Shown piece by piece: positions 8,008 to 63,897 of a stretch of 64,000 bases of DNA. Every line of letters begins with the position of its first letter. Position 1 is the first letter of the stretch. Below the pieces are notes generated by a model that was given only the letters and a program-made list of their open reading frames with translations, did not search any database and was not told where the DNA came from. This stretch comes from Mesorhizobium sp. M4B.F.Ca.ET.203.01.1.1 (GTDB lineage: Bacteria; Pseudomonadota; Alphaproteobacteria; Rhizobiales; Rhizobiaceae): positions 124,001 to 188,000 of the forward strand of contig NZ_SRUO01000011.1 of NCBI RefSeq assembly GCF_004791025.1. The letters are read 5' to 3'. The translations under genes were made by a program, and so were the position numbers.

Positions 8008-8664
8008 ATGTCCCTGACCATGCACCTCCACCCCCTGGCATCCTTCTGCTGGAAGCCGCTGATCGCGCTCTATGAGAACGGCACGCCTTTCGATGTCGTC
8101 ATCGTCGATCTCGGCAACGAGCAGTCGCGCGCGGCGTTCCTGAGACTGTCGCCGGCGGGCAAGATGCCGGTGCTGCGCGACGAGGCGCGCGGGCAGACGG
8201 TGCCGGAATCGACCATCGTGATCGAGTATCTGGCCGTCCACTATCCTGGCCCGACCGCGCTGATTCCGGACGATGCCGACCTCGCCCGCCAGGTCCGGAC
8301 CGCCGATCGCTTCTACGATTTCTATGTGCAGGAGCCGATGCAGAAGATCGTCGGCGACCGGCTGCGGCCGCAGGGCCAGACCGATCCGTTCGGTGTCGAG
8401 CAGGCGCGGGCGCAGTTGCGTGCCTCCTACGCCATCGTCGAAACCGAAATGCAGTCGAGGATTTGGGCGGTTGGCGAAACCTTCACCATGGCCGACTGCG
8501 CGGCGGCGCCGGCGCTGTTCTACGCCAACAAGGTCGAGCCGTTCGGCGACAGGTTCCCCGCGGTCAGGCGTTATCACGATCGACTGGTCGAACGACCGTC
8601 CTTCGCCCGCGTGATCGAGGAAGCCCAGCCCTACTTCAAATTCTTCCCCTACAACGACGGCTGA
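8008..8664 (+). CDS. Glutathione S-transferase family protein
   Basis: A 218-residue cytosolic GST-fold protein. The N-terminal thioredoxin-like domain has HLHPLASFCWKPLIALYENG, GKMPVLRDE (cis-Pro) and PESTIVIEYL (the glutathione-binding Glu-Ser). The helical C-terminal domain has GETFTMADCAAAPALFY, the usual N-capping box region. Catalytic residue could be Ser or Cys in the ASFC segment. It stands alone between the hydrolase and a convergent small gene; a role in detoxification is inferred only from the family. Confidence 0.9.
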   Translation: MSLTMHLHPLASFCWKPLIALYENGTPFDVVIVDLGNEQSRAAFLRLSPAGKMPVLRDEARGQTVPESTIVIEYLAVHYPGPTALIPDDADLARQVRTADRFYDFYVQEPMQKIVGDRLRPQGQTDPFGVEQARAQLRASYAIVETEMQSRIWAVGETFTMADCAAAPALFYANKVEPFGDRFPAVRRYHDRLVERPSFARVIEEAQPYFKFFPYNDG

Positions 8665-36921: not shown

Positions 36922-37071
36922 GTAACCAACGAGGAACGTAGTTTTCACGCGCCGGCGGCGTCAAAGGAAGCGGTGCGGTACCTGAAGATCAAGCGGCGTC
37001 GGCAACGCGCTACTCCCTACGACATGCATCCCGCCTTTTGCGGCAGCGTTCAGGATGAGGGAGGGGGAACC

Positions 37072-38319
37072 ATGGACGAAACGGGCGTTCTGGATGCCGT
37101 GGTTGTGGGTGCCGGATGGGCCGGCCTCGGTGTCAGCTATATGCTTGCCCGATCCGATATGCGGCATTGCGTCCTTGAACGCAGGCAAATCGGGGAAACG
37201 TGGCGGACCCAGCGTTGGGACTCGTTCCACTTCAATCTTCCCAACATTTACAGCGTGATGCCCGGCGATCGTTACGGCGGCCTAGAGCCGGAAGGGTTTA
37301 TGTCGCAGATGGAGTTCGTTGCGCTGCTCGAAGACTATGCGCAACGCAACAGACTTCCGGTTCGCACCGGCGTCTCGGTCACAAAACTGGAAGCAAGTAA
37401 CGGGCTCTTTCGCGTCGTGACGCCCGAGCGGACGTGGCTGGCGAAAAACGTGGTTGTCGCCAGCGGCAGCTTGAACCGCCCGCGTCGGCCGCCTTCGGCG
37501 TCCGCGTTGACGGGCGGGCCAGTGCAGCTCGATGCCTCCGACTACCGTAAGGCCGGCGACCTACCCGTCGGAGCCGTCCTTGTCGTCGGCAGCGCACAGT
37601 CGGGCTGCCAGATCGCCGAAGATCTGATCCTGGCGGGCAGGGAGACTTATCTTGCGACGGGCCATATTGGCCGTCTGCCACGACGCTATCGCGGGCGCGA
37701 CATTGTCGTGTGGATGGTGAAGAGCGGATTGTTTGACGTGCCCCGCAAGGATTTCGTCGATCCGTCCGGCCGCGTTGCCGCTCGGCCCATGCTTGGCGCG
37801 TTGCACACGATAAGCCTGCAGTCTCTCAGCGCGCAGGGCGTTGTGCTGCTGGGACGATTTGTCGGAGTGGATAACAGTCGCCTCATCTTCGCCAACGACG
37901 TTCTCGAAAACATTCGGTTTGGCGACGAGATTTCCGCGCAATTCAAAAACCGTATCGATGAATTTATCAAATGTAATGGTCTCAGCGCTCCTGCGCCCGT
38001 TGAGGATGAGGCGGAGGCGGTCGCTCCGCGTCTGCCCCAGCATCCCATTCTGTCGCTCGATCTCGTCGAGCGGAATATTTCAGCGATTGTCTGGTGTACG
38101 GGCTTTGACGGCGATTTCAGCTGGATCGATGTACCCGGTGTTCTCGACGAGCGACGCCAGCCGGTCCACGAAAATGGCATCGCCTCGGTTCCGGGCGTCT
38201 ATTTTGCGGGGCTCGACTTCGCGTCCACGCGTAGGTCAGGCACCGTCATGGCGGTTGACGATGAGGCACGTCGGTTTGTCGCCCGGATACAGGCTCGGGC
38301 TGATCGAGCCGTGACTTGA
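37072..38319 (+). CDS. FAD-dependent NAD(P)-binding monooxygenase (CzcO/FMO-like)
   Basis: A 415-residue flavoprotein. FAD-binding GxGxxG is in VVVGAGWAGLGVSYML at the N-terminus, followed by ERRQIGETWRTQRWDSF, SQMEFVALLEDYAQRN and ASGSLNRPRRP; a second nucleotide-binding fold is VLVVGSAQSGCQIAEDLI (NADPH) and a late ATG/CTGF segment reads IVWCTGFDGDFSWI. This is the CzcO/flavin monooxygenase group, oxygenating an unknown nucleophile. ATG 37072 has GGGAGGGGGA before it. It lies between the broken and intact VOC starts, in lower-GC sequence, so it is probably a recent arrival. Confidence 0.9.
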   Translation: MDETGVLDAVVVGAGWAGLGVSYMLARSDMRHCVLERRQIGETWRTQRWDSFHFNLPNIYSVMPGDRYGGLEPEGFMSQMEFVALLEDYAQRNRLPVRTGVSVTKLEASNGLFRVVTPERTWLAKNVVVASGSLNRPRRPPSASALTGGPVQLDASDYRKAGDLPVGAVLVVGSAQSGCQIAEDLILAGRETYLATGHIGRLPRRYRGRDIVVWMVKSGLFDVPRKDFVDPSGRVAARPMLGALHTISLQSLSAQGVVLLGRFVGVDNSRLIFANDVLENIRFGDEISAQFKNRIDEFIKCNGLSAPAPVEDEAEAVAPRLPQHPILSLDLVERNISAIVWCTGFDGDFSWIDVPGVLDERRQPVHENGIASVPGVYFAGLDFASTRRSGTVMAVDDEARRFVARIQARADRAVT

Positions 38320-57288: not shown

Positions 57289-58911
57289 TTGAAAAAGTTC
57301 TTCCCGATCCTCGCCTTCATCGCCGTCGCGCTGATCAGCCTGACGATGGCGGGGTTCGCCTATTTCGCCACGCAGGAAGCGGCGCGGATCAAGTTCGACG
57401 CGACCGCGGACGACGCGCTCAACCGGATCGAGAGCCGCATCGATCTCCACCTTTCGCTCCTGCGCTCGACCCAGGCGCTGTTCGACGCCCGCAACGGCGA
57501 CATTTCACGCAATGAATTCAAGGCGTTCTTCAACGCGCTCGATGTCGACAACAATTTCGCCGGGCTGCGCGGCATCGGCTTCCTGCGGCTGGCCAAGGCC
57601 GGCGACGAGGCGGCGGTCGAGCGCGATATCCTGCGCGACCATGGCGTCGCGCATCAGGTCTACCCCGCGACGACGCAACCCTGGCGCACGCCGATCGTGA
57701 TGTTCGAACCGATAGCTCCGTCCAACCAGGCCAGCATCGGCTACGACATGTTCACCGAGCCGGCGCGGCGGGTGGCGATCGAAAAGGCGATGGCCGACGA
57801 CCAGCAGCATGCAAGCGGCCTGATCCAGCTCGGCCAGGGGACGGGCGCTACCCAGACCTTCCCTGGGTTCCTGGTCTTCGTGCGGCTCAATGTCGAAACC
57901 GCGCCCGAGGTCATCAACGCCAGCCGGTCGTCGACGGCGGGATTCCTCTATGCGGCCTTCCGCGCCCGGGACCTGTTCCAGACTGCGCTCAGCCGCGCCC
58001 CGCTGCTGCCGGTCAACACCGAGATCTATGACGGCAAGGTGGACGCCGGCAATCTTCTGTTCCGGTCGGAGACGCCGCCGTCCGAGACCCTCGGCGAGAG
58101 GCTGCTGGTGAGCCGCAAGCTCGTCGTCGCCGGTCGTCCCTGGACGGTGCTGTTTCGGCCGACAAGCGCTTTCTCGCTGCCGTCCTCGCGCGCCATTCCG
58201 GTGATGCTCGGCCTGTTCGGACTGTTGCTCGCCGGCGCCATAGCGCTGGTGGCGCGCTATCAGGAGCGTGCCTATGACGCGGTATCGCTGCTGCACGAGA
58301 CGACGGAAAAGAGCCTGCTCGAGAAGGAGCTGATGCTGCAGGAGATGAAGCATCGCATCAAGAACTCGATCACCAGGGTGCTGGCGATCGCGCGCCAGAC
58401 GGCTTCGCACGCCACCGACGTGAAGGAGTTCTCGTCGTCCTTCGCGGCGCGGCTGCAGGCGATGGCGGCGTCGCAGGACATGCTGACCCGCTCGCGCTGG
58501 CAGAAGGCCGATCTCGGCGATCTGCTGCGCATCGAGCTCGGCCAGGTGTTCGGCAAGGAGCTTCCCGCTGGCATATTGTCCGGACCGGAGGTGCTGCTCG
58601 ACGAGACGACGACCCAGGCACTCGGCCTGACTTTCCATGAGCTGGCGACGAACGCGTTGAAATATGGCGAGGCCGGCAATTCCGTGGGGGCGCTCAAGGT
58701 CGACTGGTCGCTGCAGGGGCGCGGCCGCGACAGGCTGCTGGTGCTCAACTGGCGTGAAGCCGGACAGAAGCAGCTCGAAGCCCCGGCCAAGACCGGCTTC
58801 GGCACCAAGCTCATAGATCTCAACGTGACGCGCGAATTGCGTGGCACGATCAAGCGCGAGTTTCTCGCCGAGGGGCTGAAGGTGGAGATCAGAATCCCGC
58901 TGGCGACCTGA
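57289..58911 (+). CDS. CHASE-domain HWE/HisKA_2 sensor histidine kinase
   Basis: A 540-residue membrane kinase. Residues 1-30 form a helix (ILAFIAVALISLTMAGFAYFA), then a periplasmic CHASE domain of about 270 residues (GLRGIGFLRLAKAGDE, GYDMFTEPARRVAIEKAMAD), a second helix (AIPVMLGLFGLLLAGAIALVA), a short linker, and an HWE/HisKA_2 kinase: KELMLQEMKHRIKNSITRVLAIAR (His in MKHR), LGLTFHELATNALKYG. No PAS domain or receiver. Start is a TTG at 57289. Such kinases commonly feed PhyR or single-domain regulators; the gene lies in the same neighbourhood as phyR. Confidence 0.93.
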   Translation: MKKFFPILAFIAVALISLTMAGFAYFATQEAARIKFDATADDALNRIESRIDLHLSLLRSTQALFDARNGDISRNEFKAFFNALDVDNNFAGLRGIGFLRLAKAGDEAAVERDILRDHGVAHQVYPATTQPWRTPIVMFEPIAPSNQASIGYDMFTEPARRVAIEKAMADDQQHASGLIQLGQGTGATQTFPGFLVFVRLNVETAPEVINASRSSTAGFLYAAFRARDLFQTALSRAPLLPVNTEIYDGKVDAGNLLFRSETPPSETLGERLLVSRKLVVAGRPWTVLFRPTSAFSLPSSRAIPVMLGLFGLLLAGAIALVARYQERAYDAVSLLHETTEKSLLEKELMLQEMKHRIKNSITRVLAIARQTASHATDVKEFSSSFAARLQAMAASQDMLTRSRWQKADLGDLLRIELGQVFGKELPAGILSGPEVLLDETTTQALGLTFHELATNALKYGEAGNSVGALKVDWSLQGRGRDRLLVLNWREAGQKQLEAPAKTGFGTKLIDLNVTRELRGTIKREFLAEGLKVEIRIPLAT

Positions 58912-59335: not shown

Positions 59336-59665
59336 TTATTGTTGACCAAGATAGGTTTTTTCGGGCCGCGCACTGTCGTTGGAGGCCAGGACGAGGCCGG
59401 AGACCTGCAGGGACGCGTCGAGTGTGCCGTCCGGACGCACGTTCCAGACGATCTGGTCGTAGTCGTCCTCCAATGCCGGGTCGACGGCGAGGCATTTGGC
59501 AACGACGTGGGGAGCCTGGCCCCGAACGTCGGTCAAGGCGAAGGGCCGTTCGGCGGTGCATTGCTCGGCGGTCTCGAAGACGCTGACAGGCACCGACAAT
59601 TCACGGCATTCGGTCATGGAGTTGGAGCAGCCGATGACCAGCAGCAAGGCAGCAATATGTTCCAT
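59336..59665 (-). CDS. Small secreted Cys-containing protein in the stress locus
   Basis: I do not recognise this 109-residue protein. The N-terminus (MEHIAALLLVIGCSNSMTEC) resembles a short export signal, followed by RELSVPVSVFETAEQCTAERPF and VVAKCLAVDPALEDDYDQIVW. Three further Cys outside the signal suggest disulphides in the periplasm. ATG 59665 gives the signal; the frame opens at 59686. An exact EcfG promoter lies 22 bases upstream, giving a leader of about 15 bases. It should thus be part of the general stress output. Confidence 0.7.
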   Translation of the reverse strand: MEHIAALLLVIGCSNSMTECRELSVPVSVFETAEQCTAERPFALTDVRGQAPHVVAKCLAVDPALEDDYDQIVWNVRPDGTLDASLQVSGLVLASNDSARPEKTYLGQQ

Positions 59666-59686: not shown

Positions 59687-59711
59687 GAACGGAGCAAAAC
59701 CGGCAAAGTTC
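59687..59711 (-). promoter_or_regulatory. EcfG promoter of the 109-residue secreted protein gene
   Basis: On the minus strand GGAAC (59711-59707), 16 bases, CGTT (59690-59687): an exact match to the EcfG consensus GGAAC-N16-CGTT of the alphaproteobacterial general stress response. The start codon is at 59665. Confidence 0.88.
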
Positions 59712-59771
59712 CTGCGGCAGCGGTGTCGCCCTCGAATAATTGGCGGGCGGGAGCGAGCAGATGGCGGGACG

Positions 59772-59951
59772 TCAGCTGAACTGCATCGCCAGCGTCAGCG
59801 CGATGGCCGCGAGCAGGATGACGGCAGCGGCCAGGCGAAGCAGGGGATGGGAGACGCTGGATGAGGCCGAGGCCGGAGCTTCGGCATCCTGGAACCCGCT
59901 CATCGAGACGCGAGCGGCCTGCTCCAGCCTGTTCATGTCGGCAACCGTCAC
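59772..59951 (-). CDS. Small C-terminally anchored membrane protein
   Basis: A 59-residue protein, MTVADMNRLEQAARVSMSGFQ, with a polar Ala/Ser linker and a single C-terminal helix (LLRLAAAVILLAAIALTLAM). GTG 59951 is used because GGAGGGTGGGTCC lies in front. The frame also starts at ATG codons 59978 and 59936. Function unknown; a tail-anchored protein. Confidence 0.6.
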   Translation of the reverse strand: MTVADMNRLEQAARVSMSGFQDAEAPASASSSVSHPLLRLAAAVILLAAIALTLAMQFS

Positions 59952-60099
59952 GGACCCACCCTCCCTGTCGCGCTGCAACCGGCGAGGGCCTCAGGCCCTG
60001 GCAAGTTGCAGCGCCATCTGGGAAGAACAGCATCGGACTTTATGGTGAACAGCCGGTTAAGGGTCTTGCCGGCGCGCCCGTGGCGCGGCGCCGAGCAAG

Positions 60100-61113
60100 T
60101 CAGTCCGTGGCAAAATTGCCCTTGGGGATGACGAGGCGATATTCGAGGCGATCGCCGATGATTTCGAGCGTCGCCGTGCCGTTGAGCGATGCCGGCACGA
60201 CACGTTCCAGGGCGACGCTGCCGAAACGCTTCTCGCTGCTACTGACGTCGCGGGCGCCGATGGCTTCGCACCATGTCAGCGACAAGGCCGGCTCGCCGCC
60301 GGCGTCGGTCGTCAGCCTCGCGGTCAACTCGACGCGCCCGTCCGGCCGCGACAGGGCGCCATAGCTCACTGAATTGACGGCAAGCTCATGCATGGCCAGG
60401 CCGATATGCAGGGCGGCGTTGGGATTGAGATAGGGGTTCTCGCCCTCGAGGCGCAGGCTGCGCTCCGGGTCGGCGGCGTAGCGGCCAACCTGGCCGGAGA
60501 CGAGCTCGTGAAGGGCTGCGCCCCGCCAATTGGAGGAGGTGACCAGATCCTGCGAGGAGGCCAGCGACTGCAGCCGGCCGCGAAAGCGCGGCAGAAAATC
60601 ACCCGATGCACCGGAATAGCGGCCGGTTTGGGTGGCGATGCTCTGGATGATGGCGAGCAGGTTCTTCGAGCGGTGGCTGACCTCGCGCAGCAGCGTCTTC
60701 AGCGTTTGCTCGCGTCGCCTCTGCTCGGTGGTCTCGACCATGGTGGTGACGATGCCCTGCACTTCGCCGCCCTCGCCGTGGTCGGCGTCGATCCAGACCT
60801 GGAACCAGCGCACGCCGTCTTCGCCCGGCACGCCAAGCTCGAGCCGCTCCGGCTTGCCGGAGGCGATGACGCCGCGTTTGGCGGCGCCGATGCGCTCGGC
60901 CTGGGCGGGCGGCAGTATGCCGTTGCTGTCGGCCGTGTCGGTGGCCCACGGCGCGCGCATGTTGCGCGCCCAGACCGTCTTCATCTCGCGGTCCTGATAG
61001 AGAACGGAAATGCCGGCATTGTGCAGCGCGTGAAGCAGCGCCCGGCCAAGCTGCATTCCGCTTTCGGCCGGATGCAGGGCGATGACCTCTTCGCCCTGTC
61101 TGCTGTCGCTCAT
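60100..61113 (-). CDS. PAS-HWE/HisKA_2 sensor histidine kinase
   Basis: A 337-residue cytosolic kinase: one PAS-type domain at about residues 25-130 (LLHALHNAGISVLYQDREMKTVWARN), then HisKA_2 (LREVSHRSKNLLAIIQSIATQT, His in VSHR), ending in an ATPase domain with AMHELAVNSVSYGAL. No receiver or membrane segment. The start may be ATG 61134; 61113 is preferred for AAGG eight bases ahead. An exact EcfG promoter lies upstream. Kinases of this class phosphorylate PhyR in many alphaproteobacteria, so it probably provides positive feedback. Confidence 0.92.
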   Translation of the reverse strand: MSDSRQGEEVIALHPAESGMQLGRALLHALHNAGISVLYQDREMKTVWARNMRAPWATDTADSNGILPPAQAERIGAAKRGVIASGKPERLELGVPGEDGVRWFQVWIDADHGEGGEVQGIVTTMVETTEQRRREQTLKTLLREVSHRSKNLLAIIQSIATQTGRYSGASGDFLPRFRGRLQSLASSQDLVTSSNWRGAALHELVSGQVGRYAADPERSLRLEGENPYLNPNAALHIGLAMHELAVNSVSYGALSRPDGRVELTARLTTDAGGEPALSLTWCEAIGARDVSSSEKRFGSVALERVVPASLNGTATLEIIGDRLEYRLVIPKGNFATD

Positions 61114-61161
61114 GTTTGAGGCCTTGGAACGCATCGATCGCTTGCCACCGAGCTCAAGCTG

Positions 61162-61186
61162 AACGGCTTACTGCAAAATGGGTTCC
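61162..61186 (-). promoter_or_regulatory. EcfG promoter of the PAS-HWE kinase gene
   Basis: On the minus strand GGAAC (61186-61182), 16 bases, CGTT (61165-61162), an exact consensus match 30-50 bases before the kinase start. Confidence 0.88.
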
Positions 61187-61303
61187 CGAAAATGAGGATC
61201 CAGATGCGGTCCGCCGAGCGGCATCTCGTTGGAGGATACCGCCCGGCGGTGGCTGGAAACCGTTTGAGGGGTGCGGCTTCCAGTGTTCGGTCGAGCCTCG
61301 CCG

Positions 61304-61468
61304 TCACGCCCGTCTGAACAGTCCGGCGACCAGCGAGATGATCAGGAACGCGAGGAAGATGAAGAATAGTATCTGCGCGATGCCGGCGGAGGTGCCGGCG
61401 ATGCCGCCGAAACCAAGCGCACCGGCGATGATCGCCACGACGAGAAAAACGAGCGCCCAGTAAAGCAT
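61304..61468 (-). CDS. DUF1328 small membrane protein (YtjA-like)
   Basis: A 54-residue protein with two hydrophobic helices, [20 protein letters not shown] and [21 protein letters not shown], the pattern of DUF1328/YtjA. These proteins are often induced by stress or stationary phase. AAGGAGACGGATC precedes ATG 61468. An exact EcfG promoter lies 30 bases upstream, so it is a probable GSR target. Confidence 0.92.
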
Positions 61469-61497
61469 GATCCGTCTCCTTCCTATGCTGCGGTAAA

Positions 61498-61522
61498 AAC
61501 GTGGGTGGTTGGCGTTTGTTCC
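61498..61522 (-). promoter_or_regulatory. EcfG promoter of the DUF1328 gene
   Basis: On the minus strand GGAAC (61522-61518), 16 bases, CGTT (61501-61498): an exact match. Predicted start near 61491, leader of about 23 bases before ATG 61468. Confidence 0.9.
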
Positions 61523-61665
61523 ACCCTTTGCCGAAAAAGACGATCCCTGGAAGGGGGGTGAGACGCGAATTCCCAAGCCTCTCGGCGACGCCCGTCGCAG
61601 ACGCGCCGAAAGCTTCATTCTCAAGTGGAATGGCGGATGGCCCAGGCGCGCGCGGCGCTCCTGGA

Positions 61666-62460
61666 TTACGCCGCGGCCTTGGCCTGCCGATCGAAGAACA
61701 GCGCCTGGCTGATCAGCGCCTTGACCATGTCCGGGTTGAACGGTTTGGTGACCAGGAAGGCCGGTTCCGGCCGCTCGCCGGTCAGCAGACGCTCCGGAAA
61801 AGCGGTGATGAAGATCACCGGCACCGGCGTCGAGGATAGGATCTCGTTCACGGCCTCGATGCCTGAGCTGCCGTCGGCGAGCTGGATGTCGGCCAGCACC
61901 ATCTTCGGCCTGGTCTTGCCGAAAATCGTCACCGCCTCGGCATGGGTGCGCGCGGTGCCGACGACGCGATGGCCGAGGCTCTCGACCATCTCCTCGATGT
62001 CCATGGCGATGAGCGGCTCGTCCTCGATGATCAGGACGTCGGTCGCCACCTGGCGGGAAATCTCGTTGCTCGCCTGGGCGAGCAGGTCGGAGAATTCCTG
62101 TTCGTCGGCATCCAGGACCTCGGCCGCCTCGTCTTCGCTGAAGCCTTCGACCGCAACCAGCAGGAAGGCCTGGCGGGGGCGAGGGGCGATCGCGTTCAGA
62201 TTGGCGGCCGCGCGCTGCTCCCATGCCGATTGCGCATGTTCCTGCGGAACGCGAATGGCAATCGAGGTGAAGAGCCGCGCGAAAACCTTGTACAGCGCGA
62301 TGCGGTCGTTCGATGCCTGGGGGAAGATATCGACATCGGCGATGATGGCTTCGAGCATCGCGGCGACCAGCGCATCGCCGCTCTCCTGCGATCCGGAAAC
62401 CGCGCGCGAGAAGCGGCGCAGGAACGGAAGGTGCGGCGTGATGGTGGCGGACAGGCTCAT
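61666..62460 (-). CDS. phyR: General stress response regulator PhyR (sigma-like plus receiver)
   Basis: Anti-anti-sigma factor of the general stress response. The 264-residue protein has an N-terminal sigma-like domain (residues ~1-130, with [21 protein letters not shown] and [23 protein letters not shown] as sigma4 mimic) and a C-terminal receiver ([22 protein letters not shown], phospho-Asp in [13 protein letters not shown], Lys in LVTKPFNPD). When phosphorylated it sequesters NepR and frees EcfG. An exact EcfG promoter precedes it. Divergent from nepR-ecfG. Confidence 0.97.
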
Positions 62461-62548
62461 GTTGGACGTCTCCCTCAGATGACGCAATTGCATCAGGTGG
62501 CTATTGCATAGGTGGCTGGCCAAGCTGATTGCAAGCCCCGAGGAGCCA

Positions 62549-62573
62549 AACGCCGGCTTGCCGAAAAAGTTCC
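62549..62573 (-). promoter_or_regulatory. EcfG promoter of phyR
   Basis: On the minus strand GGAAC (62573-62569), 16 bases, CGTT (62552-62549), an exact consensus. Its GGAAC box is only nine bases from that of the divergent nepR promoter. Confidence 0.92.
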
Positions 62574-62582
62574 GGTTGCGAT

Positions 62583-62607
62583 GGAACTAATATAAGGGGA
62601 CGACGTT
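62583..62607 (+). promoter_or_regulatory. EcfG promoter of nepR-ecfG
   Basis: GGAAC (62583-62587), 16 bases, CGTT (62604-62607), an exact match. Back to back with the phyR promoter. Predicted start near 62614, leader ~80 bases to nepR. Confidence 0.93.
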
Positions 62608-62691: not shown

Positions 62692-62895
62692 ATGAAGGAC
62701 ATGACGAAAGACACTTCGGCCGGCGCCGCGGGACGGCGTCGGGTTGTTTCCGGCGACCCCTTGGGGCCAAACTCGGAAATCGGCCGCAAACTCAAGCAAT
62801 ATTACGATGAATTGGTCTCCGACCACGTGCCGGACCGCTTCGCCCAACTGCTCAGCGAGCTTGAGCAGGCCGAGCCCGCGCGGAAAAAGGACTGA
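62692..62895 (+). CDS. nepR: Anti-sigma factor NepR
   Basis: Sequesters EcfG in unstressed cells. A 67-residue protein with a polar N-terminus and the NepR core IGRKLKQYYDELVSDHVPDRFAQLL, then an acidic/basic tail. Several ATG codons are available: 62692 is chosen for reasonable spacing from GGGCGAA; 62644 would add 16 residues and 62701 would remove three. The stop is three bases before the ecfG ATG, so the two are tightly coupled. Confidence 0.93.
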   Translation: MKDMTKDTSAGAAGRRRVVSGDPLGPNSEIGRKLKQYYDELVSDHVPDRFAQLLSELEQAEPARKKD

Positions 62896-62898
62896 GGC

Positions 62899-63450
62899 AT
62901 GGCGGCCGTCTCGCAGAGCTTCAAGACCGACCTGCTCGGCTCGATCCCGAGTCTGCGCGCCTTTGCCGTGTCGCTGACGCAGAACGCCGACAAGGCCGAC
63001 GACCTGGTGCAGGAAACGCTGGTCAAGGCCTGGGACAAGCATGAGAGCTTCCAGCCGGGCACCAATCTCAAGGCCTGGCTGTTCACCATCCTGCGCAACG
63101 AGTTCTACTCGCAGATGCGCAAGCGCGGCCGCGAGGTGCAGGACAGCGACGGCATCATGACGGCGAGGCTCGCCGTCCATCCGGCCCAGCACGGCCAACT
63201 CGACCTCAAGGACTTTCGCGGCGCACTCGAACAGTTGCCGGAGGATCAGCGCGAAGCCATCATCCTGATCGGTGCGTCGGGCTTTTCCTACGAGGAGGCG
63301 GCCGAAATCTGCGGCTGTGCCGTGGGCACGATCAAGAGCCGAGTCAGCCGCGCCCGCGCCAGGCTGCAGGAGATCCTGAAAATCTCGGGCGAAGACGAGT
63401 ACGGCCCGGACGCGATCTCGGCGCAAGTGACGGGGTCGAACGCCGCCTGA
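62899..63450 (+). CDS. ecfG: General stress sigma factor EcfG
   Basis: ECF15-type sigma factor directing RNA polymerase to GGAAC-N16/17-CGTT promoters. The 183 residues include sigma2 (LRAFAVSLTQNADKADDLVQETLVKAWD, with QETLVKAW), and sigma4 (LEQLPEDQREAIILIGASGFSYEEAAEICGCAVGTIKSRVSRARARL). Follows nepR by three bases. Five exact cognate promoters lie within 3 kb. Confidence 0.96.
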   Translation: MAAVSQSFKTDLLGSIPSLRAFAVSLTQNADKADDLVQETLVKAWDKHESFQPGTNLKAWLFTILRNEFYSQMRKRGREVQDSDGIMTARLAVHPAQHGQLDLKDFRGALEQLPEDQREAIILIGASGFSYEEAAEICGCAVGTIKSRVSRARARLQEILKISGEDEYGPDAISAQVTGSNAA

Positions 63451-63519: not shown

Positions 63520-63897
63520 TCAGGCGAGCGGTCCGCGGCCGCAGGCCGCCGCCACCGCTTCGACGAGGTCCTCGCCGGAGAAGGGTTTGCTGACCAGCCG
63601 GATCTCCGGAAAGGCCGTCTTCAATTCGTCCACCTCGGAGTGGCCGGAGGCGAAGATGAAGGGCAGGCCCGATTCGCGCAGCCGCGAGGCGAAGCCGAGG
63701 GTAGAGGTGCCGCTCAGCATCAGGTCGACGATGGCGGCATCGAATTGCGCGGCCACGTGCTCCGGCTCGATCTCCGCAAGGTCGCCGGCAACAACCACCT
63801 CGCCGGCGCCATAGTCGCGGCACAGCTGTTCGACGTCGGCGGCGATCAGGAATTCGTCCTCGAGGACGAGAATCCGCAATCCGTCAAGCAATGGCAC
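63520..63897 (-). CDS. Single-domain response regulator
   Basis: A 125-residue receiver with no output domain: VLEDEFLIAADVEQLCRDYGA, phospho-Asp in AIVDLMLSGTS, and Lys in VSKPFSGEDLV. Stand-alone receivers near phyR often buffer or relay phosphate between HWE kinases and PhyR. ATG at 63897 lies close to the right edge; no EcfG promoter is seen in the 100 bases upstream. It is convergent with ecfG. Confidence 0.9.
   Translation of the reverse strand: MPLLDGLRILVLEDEFLIAADVEQLCRDYGAGEVVVAGDLAEIEPEHVAAQFDAAIVDLMLSGTSTLGFASRLRESGLPFIFASGHSEVDELKTAFPEIRLVSKPFSGEDLVEAVAAACGRGPLA

What the first reader, a model, noticed from the sequence alone, without database searches (positions are those of the whole stretch)
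59687..62607. Five exact EcfG promoters within 3 kb make a self-amplifying stress-response cluster
GGAAC and CGTT, separated by exactly 16 bases, occur upstream of phyR, nepR-ecfG, the PAS-HWE kinase, the DUF1328 gene and the 109-residue secreted protein gene. All five are perfect and correctly placed. The central proteins of the general stress response are known to be EcfG targets, but here sensor kinase and envelope proteins are included too. It implies positive feedback at kinase, PhyR and sigma levels, and a small operon-free regulon in one locus.
Basis: partly seen in the sequence, partly recalled or inferred. Interest (0 to 1): 0.65.

Follow-up and report, generated by a model that had tools for sequence, protein, structure and literature searches.

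The report
Stress sigma factor's own target island
In a soil bacterium of the genus Mesorhizobium, the master switch for stress survival sits inside a short stretch of DNA crowded with the kind of promoter it is expected to turn on, nine in about 8 kb, and similar crowding is seen around this switch in many related bacteria.

Summary
Five exact GGAAC-N16-CGTT sites lie at the stated places, before phyR, nepR-ecfG, an HWE kinase, DUF1328 and a 109-aa ORF. The genome has 109 such sites in 6.93 Mb, so 0.046 are expected here (p about 1.6e-9). In 80 named relatives plus this genome the sites mostly keep their place before the same genes, with boxes conserved and spacers drifting. In 46 loci of the same family, sites outside the core promoters are 17 times the genome rate.

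Autoregulation of phyR and nepR-ecfG, and EcfG control of a neighbouring HWE kinase, are in print. 'Operon-free' is wrong. 'Self-amplifying' is unproven: NepR shares EcfG's promoter, and the kinase's sign is unknown. The kinase promoter is the least conserved of the nine and is missing in one nine-member clade. The wider target island was not described in the listings and passages seen. No expression data were available; EcfG dependence is inferred.

The parts
59688..59712 (-). EcfG-type promoter of the 109-aa ORF (-35 59708-59712, -10 59688-59691)
   Evidence: exact site before 68 of 73 matches of the ORF; identity -35 0.93, -10 1.00, spacer 0.48, n 67
59336..59665 (-). 109-aa ORF of unknown family; conserved start MEHIAA and Cys13 (lipobox-like VIGC, by eye); secretion not shown
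   Evidence: no family; Cys13 in 97 of 97 copies whose alignment began by residue 3 (some genomes counted twice)
61162..61186 (-). EcfG-type promoter of the HWE kinase
   Evidence: exact in 57 of 81 loci; missing in a nine-member Mesorhizobium clade
60100..61134 (-). HWE-family histidine kinase (HRSKN and WCE motifs); likely PhyR-directed (inferred)
   Evidence: PF07536 E 5.1e-23; motifs
61498..61522 (-). EcfG-type promoter of the DUF1328 gene
   Evidence: exact in 81 of 81 loci (in L096 the aligned start lies 21 nt before the end of the site)
61304..61468 (-). DUF1328 small membrane protein (54 aa)
   Evidence: PF07043 2.7e-16; NF010228
62549..62573 (-). EcfG-type promoter of phyR
   Evidence: exact in 81 of 81 loci; both boxes 1.00 identical, n 81
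61666..62460 (-). phyR, response regulator/anti-anti-sigma factor
   Evidence: PF22029, PF22233, PF00072; PRK09191.1 385 bits
62574..62582 (.). 9 bp between the two back-to-back -35 boxes of phyR and nepR-ecfG
   Evidence: 6-10 bp in 73 of 76 pairs of named relatives, 18 of 18 pairs of other genera of the family, 7 of 11 pairs of the order set, which includes two loci of this genus
62583..62607 (+). EcfG-type promoter of nepR-ecfG
   Evidence: exact in 77 of 81 loci; the four misses have AGTT for CGTT
62692..62895 (+). nepR, anti-sigma factor
   Evidence: PF18557 4.7e-15
62899..63450 (+). ecfG, ECF sigma factor of the general stress response
   Evidence: PF04542, PF08281; PRK12547.1 354 bits; next best in the genome 39% identical

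Best explanation
This is the Mesorhizobium PhyR-NepR-EcfG general stress response locus, lying inside an island of EcfG target genes. A stress signal leads HWE kinases to phosphorylate PhyR; PhyR sequesters NepR; EcfG-RNA polymerase then starts at nine GGAAC-N16-CGTT promoters within 8.25 kb. They drive phyR, nepR-ecfG, an HWE kinase, DUF1328, the 109-aa ORF and, past the window end, a DUF883-like gene (with a following ORF), a 55-aa ORF, a YegS/DAG-kinase-like lipid kinase and a PRC-barrel protein. Re-synthesis of PhyR and EcfG raises response capacity; co-synthesis of NepR keeps it reversible. Shown here: sites, placement, non-randomness, conservation, gene families. Inferred: EcfG dependence (from the same motif in R. 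etli and S. granuli), phosphotransfer, the sign of the kinase's effect, and any benefit of clustering.
For: Exact sites at fitting distances. Nine in 8.25 kb against 0.13 expected. Spacer test over 80 relatives' loci: N16 628, N17 87, every other spacer from 10 to 24 only 4-69. Orthologue-linked sites and box-versus-spacer footprint. Gene identities. In 46 loci of the family, 152 sites outside 300 bp of the phyR start against 8.7 expected, decaying with distance; in the 40-locus order set 103 N16 against 5-12 at four control spacers. The same motif is reported for EcfG1 in R. etli (PMC3892343, passages) and for the S. granuli GSR (PMC7083833, passages). Relatives of island cargo are stress-sigma targets elsewhere: a PRC-barrel gene with a site in S. 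melonis (PMC6599016, passage), csbD in S. granuli (PMC7083833, passage), DUF1328 and CsbD genes in a table of RpoS-controlled small genes of Salmonella (PMC5437024, passages).
Against: No transcript data for this organism. Genome-wide the exact motif hardly exceeds its backwards control (109 v 98; N17 53 v 65), so a match alone proves little outside the island. The exact kinase site is absent in 24 of 81 loci and the nepR site is altered in 4. PRC lacks an exact site in 11 of 75, the 55-aa ORF in 6 of 70, the 109-aa ORF in 5 of 73. Other orders of the class show a weaker excess (2.2 sites per locus against 0.2 in the control, 14 loci), and 7 of the 86 family and order loci hold no site at all (L140, L144, L147, L179, L187, L194, L213). 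A sigma factor 39% identical to EcfG exists in the genome and was not examined.
Confidence: 0.88

Rival explanations
1. The loop is a homeostat rather than self-amplifying (compatible with the island, against the reader's label): because NepR is made with EcfG, and the EcfG-driven HWE kinase may work mainly as a PhyR phosphatase, EcfG output limits itself.
For: nepR is first in the ecfG unit. A negative feedback regulator under EcfG (NepR2) exists in Sphingomonas melonis (PMC6599016, passage). [quoted passage not shown] that some HWE kinases act as phosphatases is recalled.
Against: A review passage states that GSR-dependent promoters on both core units amplify the response (PMC8103513). Kinase motifs HRSKN and WCE are present.
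Confidence: 0.35
2. The clustering is inherited synteny without function: targets happened to lie together in an ancestor and simply stayed.
For: The same genes recur with their sites within Mesorhizobium, and DUF1328, DUF883-like and PRC genes recur in many genera. No species tree of gains and losses was made.
Against: Across genera other cargo appears (CsbD, AI-2E-type, cNMP-binding, ferritin-like genes) while the excess over the family is 17-fold.
Confidence: 0.3
3. Some sites serve another ECF sigma factor with similar specificity.
For: In R. etli a second EcfG also reads the phyR promoter (PMC3892343, passage). A 39%-identical sigma factor lies at C305 in this genome and was not examined.
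Against: EcfG of the window is the only close match in the genome (next 39% and 36%); the 36% one at C272 lies beside what looks by eye like its own anti-sigma gene.
Confidence: 0.08
4. The sites are chance matches in GC-rich DNA.
For: Genome-wide counts are close to those of the backwards control.
Against: Poisson p about 1.6e-9 for five and 2.6e-14 for nine; spacer specificity and footprints.
Confidence: 0.01

Closest known systems
Canonical alphaproteobacterial GSR locus (nepR-ecfG divergent from phyR, HRXXN kinase nearby)
   Same: Same genes, divergent layout, EcfG-type promoters on both core units (PMC8103513, PMC4814048, passages)
   Different: Here seven further units within about 8 kb also carry exact sites, several of them small or membrane/envelope-type proteins
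Sphingopyxis granuli TFA GSR (PMC7083833, passages)
   Same: HWE kinase gene next to phyR2 directly GSR-regulated; GGAAC-N16-CGTT motif
   Different: No wider target island is mentioned in the passages seen
Rhizobium etli EcfG1/PhyR/TcrY locus with ReC64 RNA (PMC3892343, passages)
   Same: GGAAC-N16-CGTT; ecfG1 autoregulated; an EcfG1-dependent transcript beside the phyR-kinase locus, start mapped by 5' RACE
   Different: That neighbour is an 88-nt RNA downstream of tcrY; no Rfam family reached its gathering score in the Mesorhizobium locus
S. meliloti RpoE2 regulon (PMC3616915, passages)
   Same: rsiA1 and rsiB1 RpoE2-dependent with mapped starts; two response regulator-kinase pairs also RpoE2-dependent
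   Different: Those pairs carry SMa and SMb tags, rsiA1/rsiB1 SMc tags, i.e. other replicons (meaning of the tags recalled)

Membership tests
EcfG (ECF15) promoter | GGAAC -35, CGTT -10, 16-17 bp apart | tested here: met
   five exact sites, all N16
EcfG (ECF15) promoter | lies shortly upstream of a start codon | tested here: met
   22-88 nt from site to likely start
EcfG (ECF15) promoter | boxes conserved above spacer in relatives | tested here: met
   -35 0.88-1.00, -10 0.94-1.00, spacer 0.47-0.73 over nine units (n 47-81 each)
EcfG (ECF15) promoter | transcription needs EcfG | not testable with these tools
   no expression data held
PhyR-NepR-EcfG general stress response locus | PhyR with sigma-like and receiver domains | tested here: met
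   PF22029, PF22233, PF00072; PRK09191.1
PhyR-NepR-EcfG general stress response locus | nepR and ecfG adjacent, in one direction, divergent from phyR | tested here: met
   co-transcription itself not tested
PhyR-NepR-EcfG general stress response locus | EcfG of group ECF15 | tested here: inconclusive
   Sigma domains and PRK12547.1; no match named ECF15 among those shown; context fits
HWE histidine kinase of the GSR (HRXXN) | HRXXN and W-x-E motifs, HWE_HK domain | tested here: met
   HRSKN 154, WCE 288; PF07536; the meaning of W-x-E is recalled
HWE histidine kinase of the GSR (HRXXN) | phosphorylates PhyR | not testable with these tools
   needs phosphotransfer assay
   no PAS family at E 0.01 in Pfam

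The most novel reading that the evidence does not exclude
In the window's order the general stress response switch keeps re-gathering its own targets: selection places EcfG-driven envelope and regulator genes within about 7 kb of phyR-nepR-ecfG, with changing cargo but persisting promoter density, so that the locus acts as one early, jointly induced expression domain. The back-to-back phyR and nepR-ecfG promoters, with -35 boxes mostly 6-10 bp apart, would compete for polymerase and thereby tie PhyR to NepR-EcfG supply.
Probability: 0.35. Interest if true: 0.6.

Novelty: new member of a known kind. Interest (0 to 1): 0.42.

Why it matters
It gives a list of co-located, conserved candidate general stress response targets, several of unknown function, and a rule for finding more: look within about 7 kb of phyR. 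The missing kinase promoter in one Mesorhizobium clade is a natural experiment that makes the question whether EcfG feedback through the kinase amplifies or restrains the response directly testable in close relatives. DUF1328 and CsbD families, listed as RpoS-controlled in Salmonella (PMC5437024, passages) and found behind EcfG-type sites here, hint at a shared small-protein toolkit of unrelated stress sigma factors.

Tried and rejected
Rejected: chance matches. Rejected: a local excess due only to the two core promoters; with 300 bp either side of the phyR start left out, 152 sites remain against 8.7 expected. Led nowhere: Rfam scan of the 20-kb locus at gathering scores, no families; sigma-70-type scan, none found, 0.8 expected in shuffles; family names for the 109-aa, 68-aa and 55-aa ORFs. 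The test 'an ORF follows each site' (476 of 481) is uninformative in GC-rich DNA and is not used as evidence. The 6-10 bp gap between the core -35 boxes was first thought to be strongly constrained; in the named set its spread (sd 2.2) is what the drift of the leader lengths predicts (1.8-2.7), and only the set of other genera of the family is tighter (1.1 against 5.9-13), so it is kept as a suggestion. Other site groups in the genome were looked at briefly: some precede plausible stress genes, others nothing clear.

Limits of the counts. The 46 family loci are 46 of the 100 genomes with a strong PhyR match among 121 searched; two share a genus, so 45 genera. The 40 order loci come from the 96 of 120 genomes with any match; two are this genus, 38 other genera. 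The 14 class loci come from the 42 of 114 with any match. They were chosen by strong score, mostly one per genus and away from contig ends; three are much shorter than 20 kb (L159, L201, L204). Genome sizes used for the expectation are the rounded ones, and the genome counts include the island itself. Several genomes occur both among the 80 named and the unnamed loci (equal contig lengths: L064/L118, L102/L163, L105/L164, L113/L161, L117/L183), so the sets are not independent. In one search a site counts if it ends -60 to +260 nt from the aligned start, spacers 16 or 17; the best match may be a paralogue (L113 kinase). One search dropped rows whose alignment began after residue 5 or had under 40% identity, leaving 47 of 81 for the kinase and 50 for PRC. 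The tree is a quick one of 94 rows: 80 named, own and 14 of the 46 family loci picked by hand, less one without ecfG. Names of the family (Rhizobiaceae) and order (Hyphomicrobiales) are recalled; the tools give codes.
Full report
Observation. The five sites are present exactly as described, with 16-base spacers, each 22-88 nt before the likely start codon of the named gene. Pfam and NCBIfam support PhyR, NepR (Pfam), an ECF sigma factor, an HWE histidine kinase and DUF1328; the 109-aa ORF has no family. The window is C22:124001-188000 of a 6.93-Mb genome in 327 contigs; its nearest named relatives by PhyR are Mesorhizobium waimense and M. amorphae (98%), which are also its sisters in a quick tree.

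Chance. The window has 7 matches at spacers 15-18 (shuffle mean 1.85; 1 of 100 shuffles had as many). The genome holds 109 exact N16 sites against 98 for the pattern read backwards, and 53 N17 sites against 65. The motif is therefore near background overall, yet five fall in 2.9 kb (0.046 expected, p about 1.6e-9) and nine in 8.25 kb (0.13 expected, p about 2.6e-14; Poisson). The four extra sites lie just beyond the window end, at C22:188077(+), 190564(+), 191813(-) and 191909(+). They stand upstream of a DUF883-like gene (weak, below Pfam's cut-off), a 55-aa ORF, a DAG-kinase-like gene (PF00781) and a gene with three PRC-barrel matches (PF05239).

Conservation. One scan fetched 80 named loci around phyR, mostly Mesorhizobium with some Aminobacter and Pseudaminobacter. 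With this genome added (81), an exact N16 or N17 site precedes phyR in 81 of 81, DUF1328 81 of 81, DUF883 79 of 79, nepR 77 of 81, the DAG-kinase-like gene 64 of 66, the 109-aa ORF 68 of 73, the 55-aa ORF 64 of 70, PRC 64 of 75 and the HWE kinase 57 of 81. In the four nepR misses the -10 reads AGTT. Neighbouring genes serve as a contrast in the same call: CHASE-HWE kinase 0 of 81, single-domain response regulator 0 of 78, ecfG 0 of 80, ORF behind DUF883 0 of 79, 68-aa ORF 0 of 60, glycine-zipper lipoprotein 2 of 74. Over the 80 loci GGAAC-Nk-CGTT occurs 628 times at k=16 and 87 at k=17, but 4-69 times at every other k from 10 to 24; six altered box pairs give no peak at 16. In alignments of upstream regions the nine -35 boxes are 0.88-1.00 and the -10 boxes 0.94-1.00 identical to this genome, the spacers 0.47-0.73.

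Breadth. PhyR was located in genomes of the order, class and family, and stretches of up to 20 kb were fetched for 100 of them. Exact sites (N16 or N17) average 5.4 per locus in 46 loci of the family, 4.8 in 40 of the order (two of this genus) and 2.2 in 14 of the class; control spacers give 0.5, 0.35 and 0.2. Seven of the 86 family and order loci have none (L140, L144, L147, L179, L187, L194, L213). Leaving out 300 bp either side of the phyR start, the 46 family loci hold 152 N16 sites against 8.7 expected from each genome's own count, and 3-19 at thirteen control spacers; 29 of 46 loci have three or more. Density is 0.11-0.65 per kb between -7 and +4 kb outside the core bin and 0.00-0.07 beyond, the genome rate being about 0.01. 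For the order set N16 gives 103, N17 38, four control spacers 5-12; for the class set 10, 9 and 0-3. Families that recur downstream of such sites in 101 loci (names from one member each): PhyR in 63 loci, NepR 48, DUF1328 47, DUF883-like 35, PRC 34, the 109-aa family 21, CsbD 18, AI-2E-type 16, the HWE kinase 15, a cNMP-binding regulator 11, ferritin-like 6.

Kinase feedback. Of 89 loci with the kinase on a quick phyR+ecfG tree, 61 have an exact site, 5 a one-mismatch site and 23 none; at six control spacers no locus has an exact match; the label needs at least 10 changes, 8 forced by starred branches. One clade of nine Mesorhizobium loci (support 100) lacks it altogether, with the kinase still aligned over nearly its full length and 164-194 nt behind DUF1328. 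The tree cannot tell gain from loss, but remnants such as GGGGC-N16-CGTT suggest loss. No terminator-like site was found between DUF1328 and the kinase in this window, in a scan that found no more sites than shuffles did; read-through from the DUF1328 promoter could still supply the kinase. That is inference.

Literature (passages seen, not whole papers). PMC8103513 and PMC4814048 state that nepR-ecfG and phyR are generally both under EcfG promoters and that this amplifies the response. PMC7083833 reports an HWE kinase next to phyR2 as a direct GSR target with the same motif. PMC3892343 gives GGAAC-N16-CGTT for R. etli EcfG1 and an EcfG1-dependent RNA beside the phyR-tcrY locus. PMC3616915 lists two RpoE2-dependent regulator-kinase pairs in S. 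meliloti. PMC4438053 says lovhk is not GSR-regulated in Brucella while lovK and lovR are in Caulobacter, and that the GSR locus often includes one or two kinases. PMC6599016 describes a negative feedback regulator under EcfG and lists a PRC-barrel gene with a site. PMC5437024 lists YtjA (DUF1328) and a CsbD-like protein among small genes under RpoS. PMC6180224 gave nothing on this locus. The searches showed no paper describing an island of EcfG targets around the core locus in the titles, abstract starts or passages seen; supplementary files could not be read, and most subscription papers are missing from the library.

Mechanism. Stress-activated HWE kinases phosphorylate PhyR, PhyR takes NepR from EcfG, and EcfG transcribes the island. 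Promoter identity is supported here; EcfG dependence, phosphotransfer and the net sign of the loop are inferred. The fairest statement is an autoregulated locus with positive (PhyR, EcfG) and negative (NepR) arms and a kinase arm of unknown sign whose promoter has changed state repeatedly.

Verdict. A correct observation of a real, conserved feature whose core is known.

Noticed in passing
window 62574-62582: phyR and nepR-ecfG promoters stand back to back with 9 bp between their -35 boxes; 6-10 bp in 91 of 94 pairs of two partly overlapping sets of the family, 7 of 11 in the order set, which includes two loci of this genus.
   Followed up: partly
window 57289-58911: A second HWE kinase, with a CHASE sensor domain, lies at the locus but has no exact EcfG-type site in any of 81 loci.
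   Followed up: partly
window 63520-63897: A single-domain response regulator beside ecfG without an exact site (0 of 78); possible partner of the HWE kinases.
   Followed up: no
window 59336-59665: The 109-aa ORF family keeps MEHIAA-like starts, with Cys at 13 in 97 of 97 copies aligned from residue 3 or before, an oddly rigid N-terminus for a signal peptide.
   Followed up: partly
window 59772-59978: Possible 68-aa membrane protein ORF between the kinase and the 109-aa ORF, no exact site here; similar-looking 60-aa proteins with a site occur in 7 other loci (likeness by eye).
   Followed up: no
L035 (contig C164, 23824-27888): Another group of exact sites, one before a gene resembling the PRC-barrel protein by eye.
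   Followed up: no
window 8116-8140 and 37066-37089: The two other motif matches of the window (spacers 16 and 15), not tested for conservation.
   Followed up: no
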